A stretch of 64,000 nucleotides of DNA from Sinomonas cyclohexanicum (lineage in GTDB: Bacteria; Actinomycetota; Actinomycetes; Actinomycetales; Micrococcaceae). The DNA lies in the NCBI RefSeq assembly GCF_020886775.1, contig NZ_AP024525.1:930001-994000 (forward strand). The letters run 5' to 3'. The translations under genes were made by a program, and so were the position numbers. Each line of letters starts with the position of its first letter. Within the stretch, counting starts at the first letter, position 1. Of this stretch, positions 46,276 to 59,059 are shown piece by piece. The notes beneath the pieces are model-generated. The model was not told the DNA's origin, searched no databases, and was given only the letters and a program-made list of their open reading frames with translations.

Positions 46276-47706
46276 TCACGGTGTGTCCGGTTCCGCGACG
46301 TGGAGGCGCCACGGGACGGTGGGCAGGGCGACGGTCCGGGCCACCTCGCCGTCGGGGGAGAAGATGTCCCCGACAAGACTGCCTGAGTTGGCGGCGATGA
46401 CGACGTCCATCTGGTCGACGATGCAGGATCCGACCGGCAGCAGCTCCAGGAACGGCGCGAACCGTTCCTGGAGGCGCGAGACCAGCACATCGGCCGCGGC
46501 GACGCCGACGGACCTGCCATCCTTCACGACGCGCTTGCTGAAGGTGACGAGGTACGCGTTGGAGCCGAGCGCATCGACGAAGGAGTAGCTCGTCTGGACG
46601 CCGCCCCGGTCATCCTTCGGCCACCATGGGGAGCTCGAATAGTCGTAGTACTGCAGATCCATCTCGAGCCTGCGGGGCGCCTGCTGGCCGACGGGCACGT
46701 AGGACCACACGATGCCCGTGTCCCCGAAGTACGTCGCGTCCGCGAGGAACCCGACCCCGTACAGGACAGACCGGGCCTCCTCCAGGGCCTCGAGGGTGAC
46801 GCCATAGACGCCCTCGAGCGAGTCCAGCCCGCCGTCCTTCGAGGAGTCGAGGGCGGCGAGGATGGCATCGTCGACGGCGCGGATCGCGGCAACCGCGGCC
46901 ATCTCGATCTCCACTGCGAGCGCCTCGATGGAGGCGATGATGCCGGGCTCGCCGCCGGCCGGCGGGGGAGCCTTCGCGGCCGGTCCCTCCATCGACATGC
47001 GCAGATCGATGAGGGCATTCATCTCGTGGCGGATGTGCTCTTCCGCGCGGGCGCGCGCGATGAGGGGGTCGCCGGCCTGGATCGCCTCCACGATCTCGGT
47101 GTGCTCCCGGGCCGCTCGGCGGCCGTCCCCGGCCGCGCTCGTCCAGATCAGCGGCCCGACCTCGGCCTGCAGCGCCATCTCCTGACGCGTGAGCCGGACG
47201 GACCTCGACGCGGCAGCAAGCTCGAGGTGGAACCGGCTGTCGGCCCGGGCCATGTCGGCCGGCTCGGTGGCGGTCTCGACCATGGCGCCGAGCGACAAGA
47301 GGCGCGCAACGGAGATCTGCTGTGGCCTCTCGGCAGCGGCCGCCGCCGCTGAGCCGGCCAGAACGGCACGGTATTCCCGGATGTCGCGGAGGCCGTCGAG
47401 CGTGTAGGCGGCGAGGGTGTCCCTGCGGGCCCGCGCGATATCTCCCGTGTTGGCCTTGACGAAGCTGCCGCCGCCCCGGCCCCGGCGCGTCTCCACGAGG
47501 CCGAGATGACGCAGCTCCGCCAAGGCTGCCCGCAGCGTCTGGGTCGAGACGCCCATCATGGCCGCGAGATCGTTCTCGCTCGGAAGCTGGGTCCCGTCTT
47601 CGAGGACGCCGAGCTCGATGGCATGGCGGATCCGGCGCCCGATCTCCTCGCCGCGCTCGGCGGTCTCGAGGGGAGCGAACGCGAGTTGTTCTCTCCACGT
47701 GCTCAT
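46276..47706 (-). CDS. GntR-FCD regulator fused to a Cache-type sensor domain
   Basis: This 476-residue protein has a GntR winged helix (residues about 20-80, QLPSENDLAAMMGVSTQTLR), an FCD-like helical domain (about 90-245) and an extra C-terminal region (about 255-470) with Cache/PDC features: YYDYSSSPWWP, GGVQTSYSFVDALGSNAYLV, TFSKRVVKDGRSVGVAAADV. Cache domains normally sense small molecules outside the cell in chemoreceptors; no transmembrane segment is visible, so sensing here would be cytoplasmic. The ATG at 47706 has GCAGGAGG. It is divergent from two small ORFs with a strong promoter, which it may control. Confidence 0.85.
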   Translation of the reverse strand: MSTWREQLAFAPLETAERGEEIGRRIRHAIELGVLEDGTQLPSENDLAAMMGVSTQTLRAALAELRHLGLVETRRGRGGGSFVKANTGDIARARRDTLAAYTLDGLRDIREYRAVLAGSAAAAAAERPQQISVARLLSLGAMVETATEPADMARADSRFHLELAAASRSVRLTRQEMALQAEVGPLIWTSAAGDGRRAAREHTEIVEAIQAGDPLIARARAEEHIRHEMNALIDLRMSMEGPAAKAPPPAGGEPGIIASIEALAVEIEMAAVAAIRAVDDAILAALDSSKDGGLDSLEGVYGVTLEALEEARSVLYGVGFLADATYFGDTGIVWSYVPVGQQAPRRLEMDLQYYDYSSSPWWPKDDRGGVQTSYSFVDALGSNAYLVTFSKRVVKDGRSVGVAAADVLVSRLQERFAPFLELLPVGSCIVDQMDVVIAANSGSLVGDIFSPDGEVARTVALPTVPWRLHVAEPDTP

Positions 47707-47742: not shown

Positions 47743-47789
47743 CTGAAATCAGTATAAACCCTTGACATGTGAACTCACAGGTTTAGAGT
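47743..47789 (+). promoter_or_regulatory. Promoter with possible operator before the small ORF pair
   Basis: TTGACA (47762-47767) and TAGAGT (47784-47789) are 16 bases apart. CTGAAATCAG just upstream (47743-47752) is a short dyad that the divergent GntR-Cache protein might bind. Confidence 0.55.
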
Positions 47790-47861: not shown

Positions 47862-48056
47862 ATGGTGGATGTCAACGAAGTCGTCCATGTGTGGAGCCGC
47901 GCCGGTCACGGAACTCTTGATGACCGACTGGGCCTCTACGCCCAAGCACTGACCGCAGATCGTCCGGTGGGCCCGTACCGCGCCCTCGACGACGCGCAGT
48001 CGCGTGAGGGCGGTCCACGCGACGGCGTGGGCGCGCGGATCGGAGATCGGCCATGA
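47862..48056 (+). CDS. Small ORF 1 (64 residues), unknown
   Basis: I do not recognise this protein. Support for expression comes from the promoter upstream and a strong GAGGAGG site before the ATG at 47862. The sequence is polar with no membrane segment or cysteine motif (begins MVDVNEVVHVWSRAGHGTLD). Its stop overlaps the ATG of ORF 2 (ATGA). It might instead be the start of a gene decayed by frameshifts, since an open +1 frame (SRVRAVHATAWARGSEIGHE) continues plausibly. Confidence 0.45.
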   Translation: MVDVNEVVHVWSRAGHGTLDDRLGLYAQALTADRPVGPYRALDDAQSREGGPRDGVGARIGDRP

Positions 48057-51491: not shown

Positions 51492-52883
51492 ATGACGGAC
51501 GCGTCCCCCGCCGCTGCCGGAATCCCTGCGGATGACGGCATCGCGGCGATCCTCGCCGCGCACCCCCGCGCCACCGCCGATCCCGAGGCCCTCCGGGCTG
51601 TGGCGACCGACCGCTCGGGCTACGTGCCCGCGACGCTGCCGGGCGCCGTCGTGCGCGCGCAGACGCACGACGACGTGTCCCTCGCCCTCCGCCTCGCACA
51701 CCGGCACGGGGTCGAGGTGGTCCCGCGCGGGGCGGGGACGGGCCTCGCGGGCGGCTCGAGCGCGCACGCGCGCCAGCTCGTGGTGGACGTCTCGCGGATG
51801 AACCGGATCCTGGACATCGACCCGGTGGAGATGATCGCGGTCGTGGAGCCGGGCGTGCTGAACGCCGAGGTCAACGCCGCCGTGGCCGGGCACGGCCTGT
51901 TCTACGCGCCGGACCCGGCGAGCACCGCGATCTGCTCGATCGGCGGGAACGTCGCGACGAACGCCGGCGGCATGTGGTGCGCCAAGTACGGGGTTACGCG
52001 CGAGTCGGTGCTGGGGCTGCGGGTGGTGCTCGCGGACGGCCGCGTGCTGAGGACGGGGCGGCGGACCATCAAGGGCGTCACGGGCTACGACCTCAACGCG
52101 CTGTTCATCGGCAGCGAGGGGACTCTCGGGATCGTGGTCGAGGCGACGCTGCGGCTGCGCCCGCGGCCGGTCCGCACGGAGACGCTCGCGGCGTACTTCG
52201 ACGACATCGAGGCCGCGGGACGCGCGGCCTCGGCCATCACTGCGGCGCGGATCCAGCCCTCGATCCTCGAGCTCATGGACGGGCCCACGCTCGAGGCCGT
52301 GGACCGGGCCCGCGGAACGCGCCACCGGGAGCTCGGCGGCGCGTTCCTGCTCGCGCAGACGGACGGCTACGGGGCGCACCTCGAGCTGGACGCGATCGCC
52401 GAGGCGATCGGTCCGCTCGCCTCGCACGTCCACAGGGCCGGGGATGACGCCGAGGCCGCGGCCCTCGTGCAGGCACGCCGGGACGCGATCCCGGCGCTCG
52501 AGCAGTTGGGCCGGGTCTCGATCGGGGACATCGCGGTGCCCCGCAATCGGCTCGCCGACGCGTTCGCGGGTCTCGCCGAGATCGCAGCGGCCACGGGCGT
52601 GCGGATCTTCTCGATCGCGCACGCTGCGGACGGCAACCTGCACCCCATGATCGTGGTCGAGCCGGACGAGTCGATCACCGAGGGCCCGGCGAAGGCCGCC
52701 CTCGGGGAGATGTTCCGACTGGCCCAGCGCCTCGGTGGCACGCTGACCGGCGAGCACGGCGTGGGGCTGCTCAAGCGTGAGTGGGTGGGGGAGGAACTGG
52801 GGGAACTCTCGCTCGAGCTGCAGCGGGCGGTGCGCGCGGCGTTCGACCCGTCGGGGATACTCAACCCGGGCAAGGCGATCTGA
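51492..52883 (+). CDS. FAD-binding oxidase, GlcD/D-lactate dehydrogenase type
   Basis: This 463-residue FAD_binding_4 enzyme has VVPRGAGTGLAGGSSAH, the FAD-contacting CSIGGNVATNAGGMWCAKYG and IKGVTGYDLNALFIGSEGTL, and the C-terminal LTGEHGVGLLKREW. It oxidises a 2-hydroxy acid (glycolate or D-lactate are usual). The ATG at 51492 has an AAGGAG site. It is 107 bases before the IolR-like operators and is probably a separate unit. Confidence 0.9.
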   Translation: MTDASPAAAGIPADDGIAAILAAHPRATADPEALRAVATDRSGYVPATLPGAVVRAQTHDDVSLALRLAHRHGVEVVPRGAGTGLAGGSSAHARQLVVDVSRMNRILDIDPVEMIAVVEPGVLNAEVNAAVAGHGLFYAPDPASTAICSIGGNVATNAGGMWCAKYGVTRESVLGLRVVLADGRVLRTGRRTIKGVTGYDLNALFIGSEGTLGIVVEATLRLRPRPVRTETLAAYFDDIEAAGRAASAITAARIQPSILELMDGPTLEAVDRARGTRHRELGGAFLLAQTDGYGAHLELDAIAEAIGPLASHVHRAGDDAEAAALVQARRDAIPALEQLGRVSIGDIAVPRNRLADAFAGLAEIAAATGVRIFSIAHAADGNLHPMIVVEPDESITEGPAKAALGEMFRLAQRLGGTLTGEHGVGLLKREWVGEELGELSLELQRAVRAAFDPSGILNPGKAI

Positions 52884-52901
52884 GCGTCCTGCCGTTCGAA
52901 A

Positions 52902-52917
52902 CTTTGTCAGGACAAAG
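52902..52917. promoter_or_regulatory. Putative IolR operator 1
   Basis: CTTTGTCAGGACAAAG is a perfect 7-2-7 dyad 73 bases before the tautomerase gene. It resembles TGTC-AN-GACA sites of inositol regulators. Confidence 0.65.
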
Positions 52918-52952
52918 TGTTGCCCTCGGAGCGTCCCTGGCCTAGTCTGAAT

Positions 52953-52966
52953 ATGTCAGTACAAAG
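52953..52966. promoter_or_regulatory. Putative IolR operator 2
   Basis: ATGTCAGTACAAAG is a degenerate copy of the 52902 site, 24 bases before the tautomerase ATG. Confidence 0.55.
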
Positions 52967-52989
52967 TTCCGAGCAAAGGTATCCCGCAC

Positions 52990-53394
52990 ATGCCCCTCGT
53001 CCGCATCGACGTCACCGCCGGCCGCACCCCTGAGCAGCTCTCCCGCATCAGCCGGGCGATCCACGAGGCGGTCCTGGCCGAGTACCGGATCCCCGAGCGC
53101 GACTACTTCCACATCATCACCGAGCATGCCCCCGGCCAGATCATCGCGCAGGATGCCGGACTCGGCTTCGAGCGCACGGGCGGCGTCGTGATGGTCCAGA
53201 TCTTCACGCAGGGCGGCCGCAGCCAGGAGGCGAAGGAGTCCCTGTTCGCGGCCGTCGCGGCGCGGCTCGCCGATGCCGGCATCCCCGGGGAGGACGTCTT
53301 CATCGGCTATGTCGAGAACGGCGCCGGCGACTGGTCCTTCGGGTTCGGCCGCGCCCAGTACATGACGGGCGAGCTCGCGGCCCCCGCGCGCTAG
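52990..53394 (+). CDS. 4-oxalocrotonate tautomerase-family protein
   Basis: This 134-residue protein has Pro2 after the initiator Met (MPLVRIDVTAGRTPEQLSRI), the catalytic N-terminal proline of the tautomerase superfamily after Met removal. The length and GFGRAQYMTGEL ending fit the malonate-semialdehyde-decarboxylase/cis-CaaD-like branch. It is bracketed by four IolR-like sites and precedes iolC, so a role on inositol intermediates (keto-enol or semialdehyde chemistry) is likely but unproven. Confidence 0.8.
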   Translation: MPLVRIDVTAGRTPEQLSRISRAIHEAVLAEYRIPERDYFHIITEHAPGQIIAQDAGLGFERTGGVVMVQIFTQGGRSQEAKESLFAAVAARLADAGIPGEDVFIGYVENGAGDWSFGFGRAQYMTGELAAPAR

Positions 53395-53397
53395 CCG

Positions 53398-53430
53398 AAT
53401 GTCAGAACAAACTTTTGACAGGACAATAAA
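53398..53430. promoter_or_regulatory. Putative IolR operators 3 and 4 before iolC
   Basis: AATGTCAGAACAAAC (53398-53412) and TTTTGACAGGACAATA (from 53413) are two more copies of the TGTC/GACA element, side by side and about 90 bases before iolC. Confidence 0.6.
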
Positions 53431-53515
53431 TCTGTAGCAGAGTGGACCTGTGGCCGACGCCACAGGCAGCGAAGCCGGCCCGGGACACCGGGCGTATCAG
53501 GAAGGGCACCGAGAC

Positions 53516-54503
53516 GTGACCTACGACCTTCTCACGATGGGACGCATCAGCGTCGACATCTACCCCAACGACATCGGCGTCGGACTGGCGGACGTGGAGA
53601 GCTTCGGCAAGTACCTGGGCGGCTCGCCGTCGAACGTCGCCGTCGCCGCGGCGCGGCACGGGCGCACGACGGCGGTCATCACCCGCACGGGCGACGACCC
53701 GTTCGGTGAGTACCTCCACCGCGAGCTGGCCAAGTTCGGCGTGGACGACCGGTACGTGGCCCCCGTGGCGGGCCTCCAGACCCCCGCGACGTTCTGCGCG
53801 ATCATGCCGGCCACGCACGAGTTCCCGCTCTACTTCTACGGCCGCTTCCCCACGGCCCCGGACCTGCAGATCCGCGCGGAAGAACTCGACCTCCGGGCCA
53901 TCCGGGACGCCCGCATCTTCTGGTCCACCGTGACCGGCCTGTGCCAGGAGCCGAGCCGCTCCGCGCACATTGCTGCCCACGAGGCCCGGCCGCGCGCCGG
54001 CCTTGCAGAGGGCCAGTTCACCATCCTCGACCTCGACTACCGCCCGATGTTCTGGGATTCCGAGGACGCCGCCCGCGAGCAGGTTGCCAAGGTCCTGCCG
54101 CACGTGACGGTCGCGATCGGCAACGAGGAGGAGTGCGCGGTCGCCGTCGGCTACGGAACCCCCGACGAGCAGGCCGACCGCCTCCTCGCGGCGGGCGTCG
54201 AGATCGCCGTGGTGAAACTCGGCCCCGAGGGCGTCATGGCGAAGACCCGCACCGAGCGCGTCGTCTCGGCCCCGGTCCCCGTCGAGACCCTCAACGGCCT
54301 CGGGGCCGGCGACTCGTTCGGCGGCGCGTTCTGCCACGGCCTCCTCTCCGGCTGGTCCCTCGCCCAGGTCCTCGACTACGCGAACGCCTCCGGCGCGATC
54401 GTTGCCTCGCGCCTCTCGTGCGCGGACGCGATGCCGACGCCGGCCGAGGACGTCGCTGCTGGCCGAACGCGGCCGCCTCGTCCCCGAGGCGGTGGCCCGG
54501 TGA
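53516..54503 (+). CDS. iolC: 5-dehydro-2-deoxygluconokinase, with a terminal indel
   Basis: This PfkB-family kinase (GRISVDIYPNDIGVGLADVE, LGGSPSNVAVAAARHG, LNGLGAGDSFGGAF with the catalytic Asp) phosphorylates 2-deoxy-5-keto-gluconate in inositol breakdown. Near 54448-54453 the frame changes: the normal tail SLLAERGRLVPEAVAR then TGA at 54501-54503 is read in another frame. As the sequence stands, the kinase frame runs without a stop into the next gene, giving one 672-residue kinase-aldolase polypeptide from GTG 53516. One extra base (or two missing) explains this. Confidence 0.85.
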
Positions 54504-55531
54504 CCACCGCTACGACTCCCGTGTCCTCCACCCCGCCCGCCCGCGCCGGCTCTGCCGTTCGGGGAACGTTCGACGGCGACCCCCGCCGCTACGAGTACCT
54601 CACCAAGATCCGGCTCGAGGACCCGCAGGCCGTGGCCCGCGCGGCCAAGGGCCGCCGCCGCCACCCCGGCCCCGTGCTGGGCAGGCAGAACTTCATCGTC
54701 GCTGCCGACCACCCCGCCCGCGGCGCCCTGGCCGCCCAGGGGCGGCCCGAGGCGATGGCTGACCGGCGCGAGCTGCTCGACCGGCTCCAGATCGCCCTCG
54801 CGAATCCCGCCGTGGACGGCGTCCTCGCGAGCCCGGACATCATGGATGACCTGCTGCTGCTCGGGGCCCTCGAGGGCAAGCTCGTCTTCGGCTCGATGAA
54901 CCGCGGCGGCCTTGCCGGGTTCGTCAATGAGTTCGACGACCGCTTCACGGGCCACACCGCCGAGGCCCTCGCGGCTCTGGGCGCGGACGGCGGCAAGATG
55001 CTCACGCGCATCGCGCTCGGCGACCCCGCGACCGCGTCGATCCTCGAGAGCACCGCCAAGGCCATCGATTCCCTCGCCGAGCGCGGCCTCATCGCCATGG
55101 TCGAGCCGTTCCTCTCGAACTGGGTCGACGGCAAGGTCAAGAACGACCTCTCCCCGGAGGCCGTGATCAAGTCCATCGGGATCGCGCAAGGACTCGGCTC
55201 GACGAGCGCTTACACGTGGATGAAGCTGCCCGTCGTCGACGAGATGGAGCGCGTCATGGCGGCCACGACCATGCCGACCGTGCTCCTCGGCGGCGACCCG
55301 ACCGGCCATCAGGACGAGGTCTTCGCCTCGTGGGGCCGTGCCCTCGCCCTGCCCGGTGTCCAGGGGCTCACCGTGGGCCGCACCCTGCTCTACCCGGCCG
55401 ACGGCGACGTGGCCGGTGCCGTCGCCGCCGCGGCGTCGCTGCTGCGGACCGAAGAAATCGCCCCAGAGGCCACAACACAGGCGCCCGTGGGCGCACCGGA
55501 TCGCACCACCGGCAAGGAGGCCGCACAGTGA
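54500..55531 (+). CDS. DUF2090/Cgl0158-type aldolase of the inositol pathway
   Basis: This 343-residue TIM-barrel protein (from GTG 54500) belongs to the DUF2090/deoxyribose-phosphate aldolase-like group (LLGALEGKLVFGSMNRGGLA, VEPFLSNWVDGKVKNDLSPE, AYTWMKLPVVDEMERVM). It probably cleaves 2-deoxy-5-keto-gluconate 6-phosphate to DHAP and malonate semialdehyde in place of IolJ. Some bacteria carry a natural IolC-DUF2090 fusion. Here the GTGA overlap with the expected iolC stop indicates two genes. It overlaps iolD. Confidence 0.8.
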   Translation: MTTATTPVSSTPPARAGSAVRGTFDGDPRRYEYLTKIRLEDPQAVARAAKGRRRHPGPVLGRQNFIVAADHPARGALAAQGRPEAMADRRELLDRLQIALANPAVDGVLASPDIMDDLLLLGALEGKLVFGSMNRGGLAGFVNEFDDRFTGHTAEALAALGADGGKMLTRIALGDPATASILESTAKAIDSLAERGLIAMVEPFLSNWVDGKVKNDLSPEAVIKSIGIAQGLGSTSAYTWMKLPVVDEMERVMAATTMPTVLLGGDPTGHQDEVFASWGRALALPGVQGLTVGRTLLYPADGDVAGAVAAAASLLRTEEIAPEATTQAPVGAPDRTTGKEAAQ

Positions 55532-57492
55532 CCACTCGCAGGATGACCGTTGCCCAGGCGCTCGTGGAGTTCCTCGGCCGCCAGTACACGGTTGATACCG
55601 TCGGGGGGCCTGATGGGGGCGCGTACAGGGAGCGCCTCATCCCCGGGATGTTCGGAATCTTCGGTCACGGCAACGTGGCCGGCGTGGGCCAGGCGCTCAA
55701 GCAGTGGCAGGCCGCGGACCCGACGCTCATGCCGTACTACCAGGGCCGCAACGAGCAGGCCCAGTCGCACCAGGCCGTCGGCTACGCCCGTCACACGCGC
55801 CGCCGCCAGACGTTTGCCGTCTCGACGTCGATCGGCCCCGGCTCGTCCAACCTGCTCACCGGCGCGGCGCTCGCCACGGCGAACCGCCTCCCGGTCCTGC
55901 TCCTGCCCTCGGACACGTTCGCGACGCGTGCCGCGGACCCGGTCCTGCAGCAGCTCGAGCAGCCGCATGGGTACGACATCACGGTCAACGACGCGTTCCG
56001 GCCGCTCTCGAAGTACTTCGACCGGGTCAACCGGCCGGAGCAGCTCTTCTCGGCGCTCCTGAATGGCCTGCGCGTCCTCACGGACCCGGCCGAGACCGGC
56101 GCCGTGACGATCGCGCTGCCGCAGGACGTCCAGGCCGAGGCGTTCGACGTGCCCGTCGAGTTCCTCGCCGAGCGCGAGTGGCGCATCCGCCGCCCCGAGC
56201 CCGAGGCCGAGGACATCGCCGAGGCGGCCCGCCGCATCCGCGCCGCGAAGCGCCCTGTCATCATCGCCGGCGGCGGTGTGCTGTACGCGTTCGCCACGGA
56301 CCAGCTCCGGGAGTTCGCCGAGGCGACCGGCATCCCCGTCGGGTGGACCCAGGCCGGCGTCGGCTCCCTCGCCTGGGACCACCCCCAGGCGGTCGGAGCG
56401 GTCGGTTCCACGGGCACCACGGCCGCGAACGCGCTTCTGCGCGATGCGGACCTCGTGATCGGGATCGGAACGCGCTACGAGGACTTCACCACGGCATCCC
56501 GCACGGCGTTCCAGCACGACGGCGTGAGCTTCGTGAACATCAACGTCGCCGCGATCGACGCCTACAAGCACGGCACCTCGCTGCCGATCGTCGCCGACGC
56601 CCGCAAGGCACTCGCCGGGCTCACGACGGCGCTGGGCGGCTACCGTGTCGGCGTGGAACTCGAGCGGGTGGTCGCCGACGAGAAGGCGGCCTGGGACGAC
56701 ACGGTCGACTCGGCGTTCGCCCAGGACGACGAGCCGCTCGTGTCGCAGAACGCGATCATCGGCGCGGTCAACCGCACGATGGACCCGCGCGACGTGGTGG
56801 TCTGCGCCGCCGGCTCGCTGCCCGGCGACCTGCACAAGATGTGGCGCGTCCGCGATCCGTTCGGCTACCACGTCGAGTACGGGTTCTCGTGCATGGGCTA
56901 CGAGATCCCCGGCGGGCTGGGCGTCAAGCGCGCGGCGCTCGACGCTGCTGCTCGCGGCGGAGACGGCAGGGAGGACAACCGCGACGTCGTCGTCATGGTC
57001 GGCGACGGCTCGTACCTCATGATGCACACCGAACTCGTCACCGCGGTCGCGGAGGGCATCAAGCTCATCACCGTGCTTATCCAGAACCATGGCTACGCCT
57101 CGATCGGCGCGCTGTCCGAATCCCTCGGCTCGCAGCGCTTCGGCACGAAGTACCGAACCCTCGACCGGGAGCACCACACATTCGACGACGGGGACAAGCT
57201 CCCGATTGACCTCGCCACGAACGCCGAGAGTCTCGGCGTCACCGTGTACCGGATCGAGCCCGGGCCCAACGCGATCGCCGACCTCGAGGCAGCCCTCGGG
57301 AAGGCCAAGGCCGCACCCGAGGGCTCGGGCCCGATCGTGATCCACATCGAGTCGGACCCGCTCATCGACGCACCGAGCTCCGAGTCCTGGTGGGACGTGC
57401 CCGTCTCCGGTGCCTCCGAACTCGAGTCCACCCAGAAGGCCTTCGAGGTCTACGCCGACCACAAGAGCCGCCAGCGGCCGCTGCTCGGGTGA
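55528..57492 (+). CDS. iolD: 3D-(3,5/4)-trihydroxycyclohexane-1,2-dione hydrolase
   Basis: This 654-residue ThDP-dependent enzyme has IPGMFGIFGHGNVAGVGQAL, the catalytic Glu-type region GRNEQAQSHQAVGYAR, and the ThDP/metal motif VVMVGDGSYLMMHTELVTAV. It opens the ring of the trione from scyllo-inosose dehydration. GTG 55528 overlaps the preceding stop (GTGA), and AAGGAGG precedes it. Confidence 0.95.
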   Translation: MTTRRMTVAQALVEFLGRQYTVDTVGGPDGGAYRERLIPGMFGIFGHGNVAGVGQALKQWQAADPTLMPYYQGRNEQAQSHQAVGYARHTRRRQTFAVSTSIGPGSSNLLTGAALATANRLPVLLLPSDTFATRAADPVLQQLEQPHGYDITVNDAFRPLSKYFDRVNRPEQLFSALLNGLRVLTDPAETGAVTIALPQDVQAEAFDVPVEFLAEREWRIRRPEPEAEDIAEAARRIRAAKRPVIIAGGGVLYAFATDQLREFAEATGIPVGWTQAGVGSLAWDHPQAVGAVGSTGTTAANALLRDADLVIGIGTRYEDFTTASRTAFQHDGVSFVNINVAAIDAYKHGTSLPIVADARKALAGLTTALGGYRVGVELERVVADEKAAWDDTVDSAFAQDDEPLVSQNAIIGAVNRTMDPRDVVVCAAGSLPGDLHKMWRVRDPFGYHVEYGFSCMGYEIPGGLGVKRAALDAAARGGDGREDNRDVVVMVGDGSYLMMHTELVTAVAEGIKLITVLIQNHGYASIGALSESLGSQRFGTKYRTLDREHHTFDDGDKLPIDLATNAESLGVTVYRIEPGPNAIADLEAALGKAKAAPEGSGPIVIHIESDPLIDAPSSESWWDVPVSGASELESTQKAFEVYADHKSRQRPLLG

Positions 57493-57559
57493 GCAGCGCC
57501 GTCGTCCGCCACAGACCCTCCACCTGCCCCCCGCGAAGAATTCACACAGGAGCAAGAGC

Positions 57560-59059
57560 ATGACCATCAAGACCATCCCGCATTACCTCAACGGTGAGGA
57601 GACCAACGGCTCCGGCGAGCGGACGCAGGCGGTGTTCAACCCGGCCACGGGTGAGCAGACCGGCGAGCTGCGGCTCGCGGATGCCGCGGACCTGGAGACC
57701 GCGGTTGCGAACGCCCGCAAGGCCGCGGATTCGTGGGGGGACATCTCCCTGGCCAAGCGGACCGCGGTGCTGTTCCGGTTCCGTGAGCTCGTCGCGGCGC
57801 ACGTCGATCAGCTGGCCGAGCTCGTGACCTCCGAGCACGGCAAGGTGATCTCGGACGCGAAGGGCGAGATCGGCCGCGGCCTGGAGGTCGTGGAGTTCGC
57901 GTGCGGGATCCCGCAGCTTCTCAAGGGCGCCTACTCGGACCAGGCCTCGACCGGGATCGACGTGTTCTCCTACCGCCAGCCGGTCGGGGTCGTTGCGGGC
58001 ATCACCCCGTTCAACTTCCCGGTGATGGTGCCGCTGTGGATGGCCCCGGTGGCGATCGCCACGGGCAACGCGTTCATCCTCAAGCCCTCCGAGCGGGACC
58101 CCTCCGCCTCGATGCTGCTGGCCAGGCTGTGGACCGAGGCAGGCCTGCCGGACGGTGTGTTCCAGGTCCTGCACGGCGGGAAGGAGACCGTGGACGGGCT
58201 CCTGACGCATCCGGACGTGGACGCGATCTCGTTCGTGGGCTCGACCCCAATCGCGAAGTACGTTCAGGAGACGGCCACGGCGCACGGCAAGCGCGTCCAG
58301 GCCCTGGGCGGGGCGAAGAACCACGCGATCATCCTCCCGGACGCGGACCTGGACAACGCCGCGGACCACCTCTCGGCCGCCGCCTTCGGCTCCGCCGGGG
58401 AGCGGTGCATGGCGATCTCCGTGGCCATCGCGGTCGGGCAGATCGGCGACGACCTCGTGGGCAAGGTCGCCGAGCGGGCCGAGGCGGTCAAGGTTGCCGA
58501 GGGCACCGAGCCGGACGCGGAGATGGGCCCGATCATCACCGCCGCCTCCAAGGAGCGGATGAAGGGCATCGTCACGGCCGCGGCCGAGTCCGGGGCCGAG
58601 CTCGTGGTGGACGGGCGCGAGTTCACCGTGCCCGGCAAGGAGGGCGGCTTCTGGTTCGGCCCGACCGTGATCGACAAGGTCGCCACGGACACCCAGGCGT
58701 ACACCGAGGAGATCTTCGGCCCCGTCCTGGCGGTGGTGCGGGTCGAGACGGTCGAGGAGGCCATCGAGCTGATCAACGCCAATCCCTACGGTAACGGCAC
58801 CGCGATCTTCACCTCCTCCGGCTCCAACGCCCGCAAGTTCCACCGCGGCGTGCACGTGGGCATGATCGGGGTCAACGTCCCGATCCCCGTCCCCGTCGCG
58901 TACCACTCCTTCGGCGGATGGAAGGACTCCCTCTTCGGCGACACGCACATCTACGGCGAGGAAGGCGTGGCCTTCTACACCCGCGGCAAGGTCATCACCC
59001 AGCGCTGGCCCGAGCCCACCCACGCCTCCGGCGCCTCCTACAACTTCCCGTCCAACTGA
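57560..59059 (+). CDS. mmsA: Methylmalonate/malonate semialdehyde dehydrogenase (CoA-acylating)
   Basis: This 499-residue aldehyde dehydrogenase has the family's ITPFNFPVMVPLWMAPVAIA, LGGAKNHAIILPDADLDNAA and catalytic cysteine FGSAGERCMAIS. It converts malonate semialdehyde to acetyl-CoA (IolA role), the exit of the inositol pathway. The ATG at 57560 has a CAGGAGCAAGAGC leader. Gap to iolD is 67 bases. Confidence 0.95.
   Translation: MTIKTIPHYLNGEETNGSGERTQAVFNPATGEQTGELRLADAADLETAVANARKAADSWGDISLAKRTAVLFRFRELVAAHVDQLAELVTSEHGKVISDAKGEIGRGLEVVEFACGIPQLLKGAYSDQASTGIDVFSYRQPVGVVAGITPFNFPVMVPLWMAPVAIATGNAFILKPSERDPSASMLLARLWTEAGLPDGVFQVLHGGKETVDGLLTHPDVDAISFVGSTPIAKYVQETATAHGKRVQALGGAKNHAIILPDADLDNAADHLSAAAFGSAGERCMAISVAIAVGQIGDDLVGKVAERAEAVKVAEGTEPDAEMGPIITAASKERMKGIVTAAAESGAELVVDGREFTVPGKEGGFWFGPTVIDKVATDTQAYTEEIFGPVLAVVRVETVEEAIELINANPYGNGTAIFTSSGSNARKFHRGVHVGMIGVNVPIPVPVAYHSFGGWKDSLFGDTHIYGEEGVAFYTRGKVITQRWPEPTHASGASYNFPSN

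What the first reader, a model, noticed from the sequence alone, without database searches (positions are those of the whole stretch)
46276..47706. GntR regulator carrying a Cache-type sensor domain in the cytoplasm
Residues about 255-470 have Cache/PDC hallmarks (YYDYSSSPWWP, a later Tyr-Asp pair and TFSKRV) following complete GntR and FCD domains. Cache modules are typically extracytoplasmic; I see no membrane segment. This would be a one-component regulator with two stacked ligand domains.
Basis: partly seen in the sequence, partly recalled or inferred. Interest (0 to 1): 0.65.

Follow-up and report, generated by a model that had tools for sequence, protein, structure and literature searches.

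The report
GntR regulator with cytoplasmic Cache sensor
A soil actinobacterium's gene switch carries a sensor domain normally found outside cells, and in over a hundred relatives that sensor is a separate small soluble protein made by the gene directly next to the switch, which points to an undescribed two-part way of sensing amine-type nutrients inside the cell.

Summary
Confirmed, and larger than reported. The gene (minus strand, 476 aa) encodes GntR wHTH, FCD and a dCache domain with no membrane segment. AlphaFold models the Cache part well (pLDDT 84). Its nearest solved structures are amine-type chemoreceptor and kinase sensor domains (CqsR, McpX, McpU, TlpQ, PctD; Z 17.7-18.8). A genome survey shows the fusion is the exception. 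Among 131 distinct relatives of this Cache, 114 are separate soluble genes (median 238 aa) directly downstream of a GntR-FCD gene, 66 with an exact 4-nt stop/start overlap. Four have the order reversed, 12 are fused and one is cut by a contig end. No evaluable copy lacked a GntR-FCD partner. The two ligand-amine aspartates of PctA are invariant (131/131), whereas the partner FCD metal site has collapsed in 51/127, against 1/37 unpaired FCDs. Paired loci are enriched for PotA-like polyamine ABC transporters (36/83 vs 1/49). Best reading: the Cache is a cytosolic amine or amino-acid sensing subunit of a GntR repressor, split in most lineages and fused here, where the FCD site is also intact. GntR-dCache fusions appear in one published figure; I found no description of the split pair. 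Ligand, protein contact and regulon are inferred, not shown.

The parts
46276..47706 (-). Fused GntR-FCD-dCache regulator gene, 476 aa
47473..47649 (-). GntR winged helix-turn-helix DNA-binding domain (residues 20-78)
   Evidence: PF00392
47029..47385 (-). FCD effector domain (residues 108-226) with the four canonical metal-ligand residues D156, H160, H202, H224
   Evidence: PF07729; residues invariant in A1
46297..46959 (-). dCache sensor domain (residues 250-470): long N-terminal helix 252-288, then two alpha/beta subdomains
46489..46647 (-). Predicted dCache ligand pocket: Y354, S359 (Arg126 of PctA replaced), W361, W362, F376, D378 (=D146 of PctA), D406 (=D173 of PctA)
   Evidence: PctA alignment; column census
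47765..47782 (.). Candidate operator, 18-bp dyad ACATGTGAACTCACAGGT, 59-76 nt upstream of the start codon; present in two Sinomonas relatives with at most one base different, and the only match in this genome at up to one mismatch

Best explanation
This is a fused form of a GntR-FCD transcription repressor plus a cytosolic dCache sensor subunit. In most relatives the Cache is its own soluble protein of about 238 aa, encoded immediately next to the GntR-FCD gene, often through a 4-nt stop/start overlap; here the two are one chain. Proposed mechanism: the Cache pocket binds an intracellular amine or amino-acid-like metabolite through the two conserved aspartates and an aromatic wall. Binding changes the Cache dimer, whose first long helix follows the last FCD helix, and this alters GntR binding to an operator dyad in the regulator's own promoter and in nearby uptake or catabolism promoters. 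Shown: architecture, fold, obligate gene pairing, overlap, co-inheritance, pocket conservation, FCD-site loss in many partners, enrichment of polyamine-type transporter genes. Inferred: physical contact of the split proteins, ligand binding, direction of regulation, operator, regulon. In this genome the amine involved may belong to choline/betaine/sarcosine or polyamine/agmatine metabolism (low confidence).
For: Fold: Cache-only AF2 model pLDDT 83.7; CqsR Z 18.8 (200 aligned, 3.3 A), McpX 18.4, McpU 18.4, TlpQ 17.8, PctD 17.7, PacA 16.5. Profile A3 versus PDB sequences: PctA E 1e-13. All 28 A3 members match PF22673 and 22 match PF02743. Pairing: of 131 distinct Cache sequences, 114 lie just downstream of GntR-FCD (66 with exactly 4-nt overlap), 12 are fused, 4 are in reverse order, 1 is at a contig end. 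Shine-Dalgarno-like bases precede 99 of 114 starts, and the distance matrices of Cache and GntR-FCD correlate at r = 0.90. Pocket: D146 and D173 equivalents 131/131, aromatic at 128 and 144 in 131/131. FCD site collapsed (0-1 of 4 ligands) in 51/127 partners versus 1/37 unpaired FCDs. Context: PotA-like ATPase near 36/83 pairs versus 1/49 unpaired FCDs (p 4e-8) and SBP 22/83 versus 0/49. PotA, YdcS-like SBP, PotB, SSADH, BetA and PurU named by NCBIfam; agmatinase beside the A. globiformis orthologue; sarcosine oxidase soxAB and purU beside the window gene.
Against: No binding, interaction or expression data. The full-length model is weak (pLDDT 70.9, pTM 0.50), so domain packing is not predicted. 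The Cache profile was built from paired members, so lone relatives of low similarity could be missed. The R126 carboxylate contact of the amino-acid motif is missing here (S359), so ligand class is uncertain. The candidate operator occurs once in the genome, at the gene's own promoter, so regulation of the neighbouring sox operon is not supported by sequence. The sox/purU neighbourhood is kept only in Sinomonas, not in the Arthrobacter orthologues. Counts across related genomes are not independent events.
Confidence: 0.68

Rival explanations
1. The Cache is only a dimerisation or structural module for GntR; ligand sensing stays in the FCD metal site and the Cache pocket is empty.
For: FCD ligands D/H/H/H are intact in the window gene and 58/127 partners.
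Against: Both ligand aspartates and the aromatic wall are kept in 131/131 Cache sequences while the FCD site is lost in 51/127 partners, the opposite of what this predicts.
Confidence: 0.12
2. The Cache is a cytosolic amine/amino-acid binding protein translated with GntR but working elsewhere (buffering, enzyme or transporter control); the fusion is incidental.
For: Most copies are separate proteins; transporters are common neighbours.
Against: Exclusive pairing with GntR-FCD, in-frame fusion in two to three lineages, kept pairing in reverse order with the overlap retained, and co-inheritance r = 0.90.
Confidence: 0.1
3. The protein is peripheral to the membrane or extracytoplasmic by an unusual route, as for ordinary Cache receptors.
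For: Cache domains are mostly extracellular (78% in PMC4822843); the Cache N-terminal helix reaches hydropathy 1.76 in this one protein.
Against: It is fused behind a DNA-binding domain, and 19-residue hydropathy maxima of solo relatives are 0.95-1.76 with starts of polar, signal-free sequence.
Confidence: 0.03
4. The window regulator senses a choline/betaine/sarcosine pathway metabolite and controls the adjacent glyA-soxBDAG-purU operon.
For: Convergent sox/purU operon beside the gene in three Sinomonas; a related reversed-order pair sits between purU and betA; closest folds bind ethanolamine, quaternary amines or betaine.
Against: Arthrobacter orthologues lie elsewhere, e.g. by agmatinase and aminobutyraldehyde dehydrogenase; the candidate operator is absent from the sox side.
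Confidence: 0.3

Closest known systems
FadR/FCD subfamily GntR regulators (DhdR, NanR, VanR, CGL2915)
   Same: wHTH plus FCD helical domain with four metal-ligand residues; matches 9jpj, 2di3, 6on4 by sequence and VanR, NanR, DhdR by fold
   Different: A second, C-terminal sensor domain; many paired relatives have lost the FCD metal site
dCache_1 amine receptors (CqsR, McpU, McpX, TlpQ, PctD, PacA)
   Same: Fold over 200-220 residues, Z 16.5-18.8; conserved Asp at the PctD D235 position
   Different: No membrane anchor, no kinase/MCP output; cytosolic; joined to or paired with a transcription factor
dCache_1AA amino-acid receptors (PctA)
   Same: Best PDB sequence match of the family profile; W128, aromatic 144, D146, D173 kept
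   Different: R126, the ligand-carboxylate contact, is Ser here and Arg in only 24/131 relatives
GntR-dCache_1AM architecture listed in Cerna-Vargas et al. 2023 (PMC10104139, Figure 4 legend)
   Same: GntR output domain joined to dCache_1 is listed there among amine-receptor architectures
   Different: No mention found there of the cytosolic location, the FCD domain or the two-gene form

Membership tests
FCD/FadR subfamily of GntR regulators | N-terminal GntR wHTH above Pfam cut-off | tested here: met
   PF00392 58.1 bits, cut-off 27
FCD/FadR subfamily of GntR regulators | FCD domain above Pfam cut-off | tested here: met
   PF07729 60.3 bits, cut-off 24.3
FCD/FadR subfamily of GntR regulators | Asp and three His metal ligands | tested here: met
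   D156, H160, H202, H224 present and invariant in orthologues; metal binding itself not tested
Cache (dCache) superfamily | Fold: long N-terminal helix and two PAS-like subdomains | tested here: met
   Helix 252-288 and Z up to 18.8 to dCache structures
Cache (dCache) superfamily | Sequence match to a Cache/PDC family model | tested here: met
   PF22673 28.9 bits over cut-off 27; PF02743 31.8 bits, significant but under its cut-off 45
Extracytoplasmic Cache receptors | Cache between two transmembrane helices | tested here: not met
   No membrane segment in the gene or relatives
dCache_1AA amino-acid sensors | Complete motif Y121, R126, W128, Y129, Y144, D146, D173 (PctA numbering) | tested here: not met
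   R126 is S359; W361, F376, D378, D406 present
dCache_1AM amine sensors | Conserved Asp (D235 of PctD) in the pocket | tested here: met
   D406, invariant in 131/131
dCache_1AM amine sensors | Additional helical element with the R103-D133 pair above the pocket | not tested
   PctD was not aligned residue by residue here
dCache_1AM amine sensors | Binds amines | not testable with these tools
   Needs calorimetry or thermal shift

The most novel reading that the evidence does not exclude
A widespread actinobacterial two-protein transcription control system in which a solo, soluble dCache protein is the ligand-sensing subunit of a GntR-FCD repressor. In many lineages the repressor has given up its own FCD ligand site, making this a sensor/repressor pair that works in the cytosol without phosphotransfer. 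The window gene is a natural fusion of the two.
Probability: 0.6. Interest if true: 0.72.

Novelty: new variant of a known kind. Interest (0 to 1): 0.62.

Why it matters
Cache domains are treated as the main extracytoplasmic sensors of prokaryotes. A family of soluble Cache proteins tied to a transcription factor shows the module also works inside the cell, and suggests how a one-component regulator can gain or hand over its sensor: a neighbouring gene, a 4-nt overlap, then fusion. The natural fusions and the split pairs make sensor-repressor contact directly testable. The pocket motif and transporter neighbours give testable ligand candidates for many regulators annotated only as 'FCD domain-containing' and 'cache domain-containing' proteins.

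Tried and rejected
Lone Cache genes: five copies first lacked an upstream GntR-FCD. Four have it directly downstream, also with ATGA overlap (L170), and one is cut by a contig end. Programmed frameshift between overlapping GntR and Cache frames: rejected, because the downstream frame has its own start at the overlap in most pairs and often a Shine-Dalgarno-like sequence. Background bias for FCD site loss: the first control held only high-scoring FCDs, so lower-scoring ones were added and the difference stayed. Weak profile hits under about 56 bits are long ORFs of 500-800 aa, not solo Cache genes; a similar weak plasmid hit is an annotated chemoreceptor. A Pseudomonadota survey could not be centred. 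Phage-collection hits are 'diguanylate cyclase' frames in Acinetobacter records. Literature searches for GntR with Cache or related terms returned only PMC10104139 as relevant.

Full report
Observation. The gene is a 476-aa ORF at 46276-47706 on the minus strand. It lies in a 4.41-Mb single-contig genome whose closest named relatives are Sinomonas. Pfam gives GntR 20-78, FCD 108-226 and Cache/PDC signal 307-448; PF22673 is over its cut-off and PF02743 is significant but below its own. No membrane segment is predicted from hydropathy. Orthologues with the same layout are found in Sinomonas and Arthrobacter at 52-84% identity. A paralogue with the same layout lies elsewhere in the genome at 34% identity, divergent from a succinate-semialdehyde-type dehydrogenase.

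Fold. The full-length AlphaFold model is moderate (pLDDT 70.9), but its Foldseek hits are of two kinds, dCache sensors and FCD regulators. The Cache part predicted alone is good (pLDDT 83.7, pTM 0.83). Its best structural neighbours are CqsR with serinol or ethanolamine (Z 18.8, 18.6), McpX (18.4), McpU with putrescine (18.4), TlpQ (17.8), PctD (17.7) and PacA (16.5), aligned over 200-221 residues at 3.3-3.9 A. The alignment used for modelling held only six sequences. A family profile made from 28 sequences finds PctA as its best PDB sequence match, E 1e-13.

Survey. A profile of the Cache part matched 120 of 395 genomes of the family. With the wider profile A3 it matched 84 of 396 in the order (weak receptor hits included), 47 of 394 in the class and 15 of 396 in the phylum. 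The strong matches are mostly not fusions. In 131 distinct Cache sequences extracted, 114 are separate genes immediately downstream of a GntR-FCD gene and 12 are fused. Four sit in front of their GntR-FCD gene, in one genus, with choline dehydrogenase downstream and, in two of them, purU upstream; in L170 the overlap is again ATGA. One is cut by a contig end. One 'separate' case (L079) has a gap of about 0.77 kb. Of the 114, 66 have the stop of GntR and the start of Cache overlapping by exactly 4 nt (ATGA or GTGA), 84 overlap by some amount, and 99 have Shine-Dalgarno-like bases before the Cache start. Of nineteen class-survey loci, several repeated from earlier surveys, all carry a GntR-FCD signal beside or within the Cache frame, but L184 and L190 show only a partial one. 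Plasmid records show the pair annotated separately as 'FCD domain-containing' or 'GntR family' and 'cache domain-containing' or 'hypothetical' proteins.

History. On a tree of the 131 Cache domains the window gene belongs to one fused clade (Sinomonas and some Arthrobacter-like genomes). The second copy of this genome (L088) is fused while its nearest relative in the same genus (L075) is split by a TAA codon and a 15-nt gap. L144 is fused but on a long branch. So fusion happened at least twice, probably three times. Cache and GntR-FCD distances correlate at r = 0.90 against at most 0.07 in 500 permutations.

Pocket and FCD site. In PctA numbering, D146 and D173 are Asp in 131/131, position 128 is aromatic in 131/131, 129 in 129/131 and 144 in 131/131. 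R126 is Arg in only 24/131, which include the betA-linked group with the complete motif. In the window gene these are W361, W362, F376, D378, D406, with S359 in place of R126. The partner FCD site Asp/His/His/His is whole in 58/127 and reduced to 0-1 ligands in 51/127, against 1/37 in unpaired FCDs of the same and related genomes (related sequences, so the Fisher p of 4e-6 is only a guide). The natural reading is that sensing is carried by the Cache and, in part of the family, only by the Cache.

Context. The commonest neighbours are PotA-like ATPases, YdcS-like binding proteins and PotB-like permeases, mostly divergent from the pair, then aldehyde dehydrogenases, amino-acid permeases and a cluster recognised by eye as glutamine-synthetase-like. 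PotA occurs near 36/83 pairs against 1/49 unpaired FCD genes. The A. globiformis orthologue lies by an agmatinase and an aminobutyraldehyde-dehydrogenase-like gene. The window gene is convergent with glyA-soxBDAG-purU, conserved in three Sinomonas. All of this points to amines or amino-acid-like compounds, but the exact ligand for this gene is open.

Operator. An 18-bp dyad, ACCTGTGAGTTCACATGT on the gene's strand, lies 59-76 nt upstream of the start codon. It is present in two Sinomonas relatives with at most one base different, sits at the place where two Arthrobacter orthologues have another inverted repeat (GACCTT-N8-AAGGTC in L012 and L013), and is unique in the genome at up to one mismatch. 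It suits autoregulation. No copy lies near the sox operon.

What is known. Cache domains were reported as principally extracellular, 78% confidently so, with two small intracellular families (PMC4822843). A GntR-dCache architecture is listed in a figure legend on amine receptors (PMC10104139). The library searched holds only open-licence papers, so earlier description elsewhere cannot be excluded; the amino-acid sensor paper in PNAS was not held.

Noticed in passing
47862-48056 (+): Divergent small ORF starting MVDVNEVVHVWSRAG is the front of a ~100-aa uncharacterised gene that is longer in L009 and, downstream of the orthologue, in L013 (no Pfam match); in this genome the frame is broken after about 46 residues.
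   Followed up: partly
L002 / own genome 3837741-3839114 (-): Second GntR-FCD-Cache fusion in the same genome, divergent from an SSADH-like gene and close to a class I glutamine amidotransferase-like gene; the nearest relative in the same genus is split by a stop codon.
   Followed up: yes
L158, L166, L170, L171: Reversed order, Cache then GntR-FCD, followed by choline dehydrogenase betA; serine dehydratase-like and purU genes lie upstream in L170 and L171. The Cache has the complete amino-acid motif.
   Followed up: partly
L132 (Gordonia KTR9 plasmid pGKT2): GntR-FCD/Cache pair on a mobilizable plasmid next to cytochrome P450 and cupin genes.
   Followed up: no
51492-59059 (+): Neighbouring block with an FAD-linked oxidase, a PfkB kinase fused to a Cgl0159-like domain, and an aldehyde dehydrogenase, resembling an inositol catabolism locus (resemblance from memory).
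   Followed up: no
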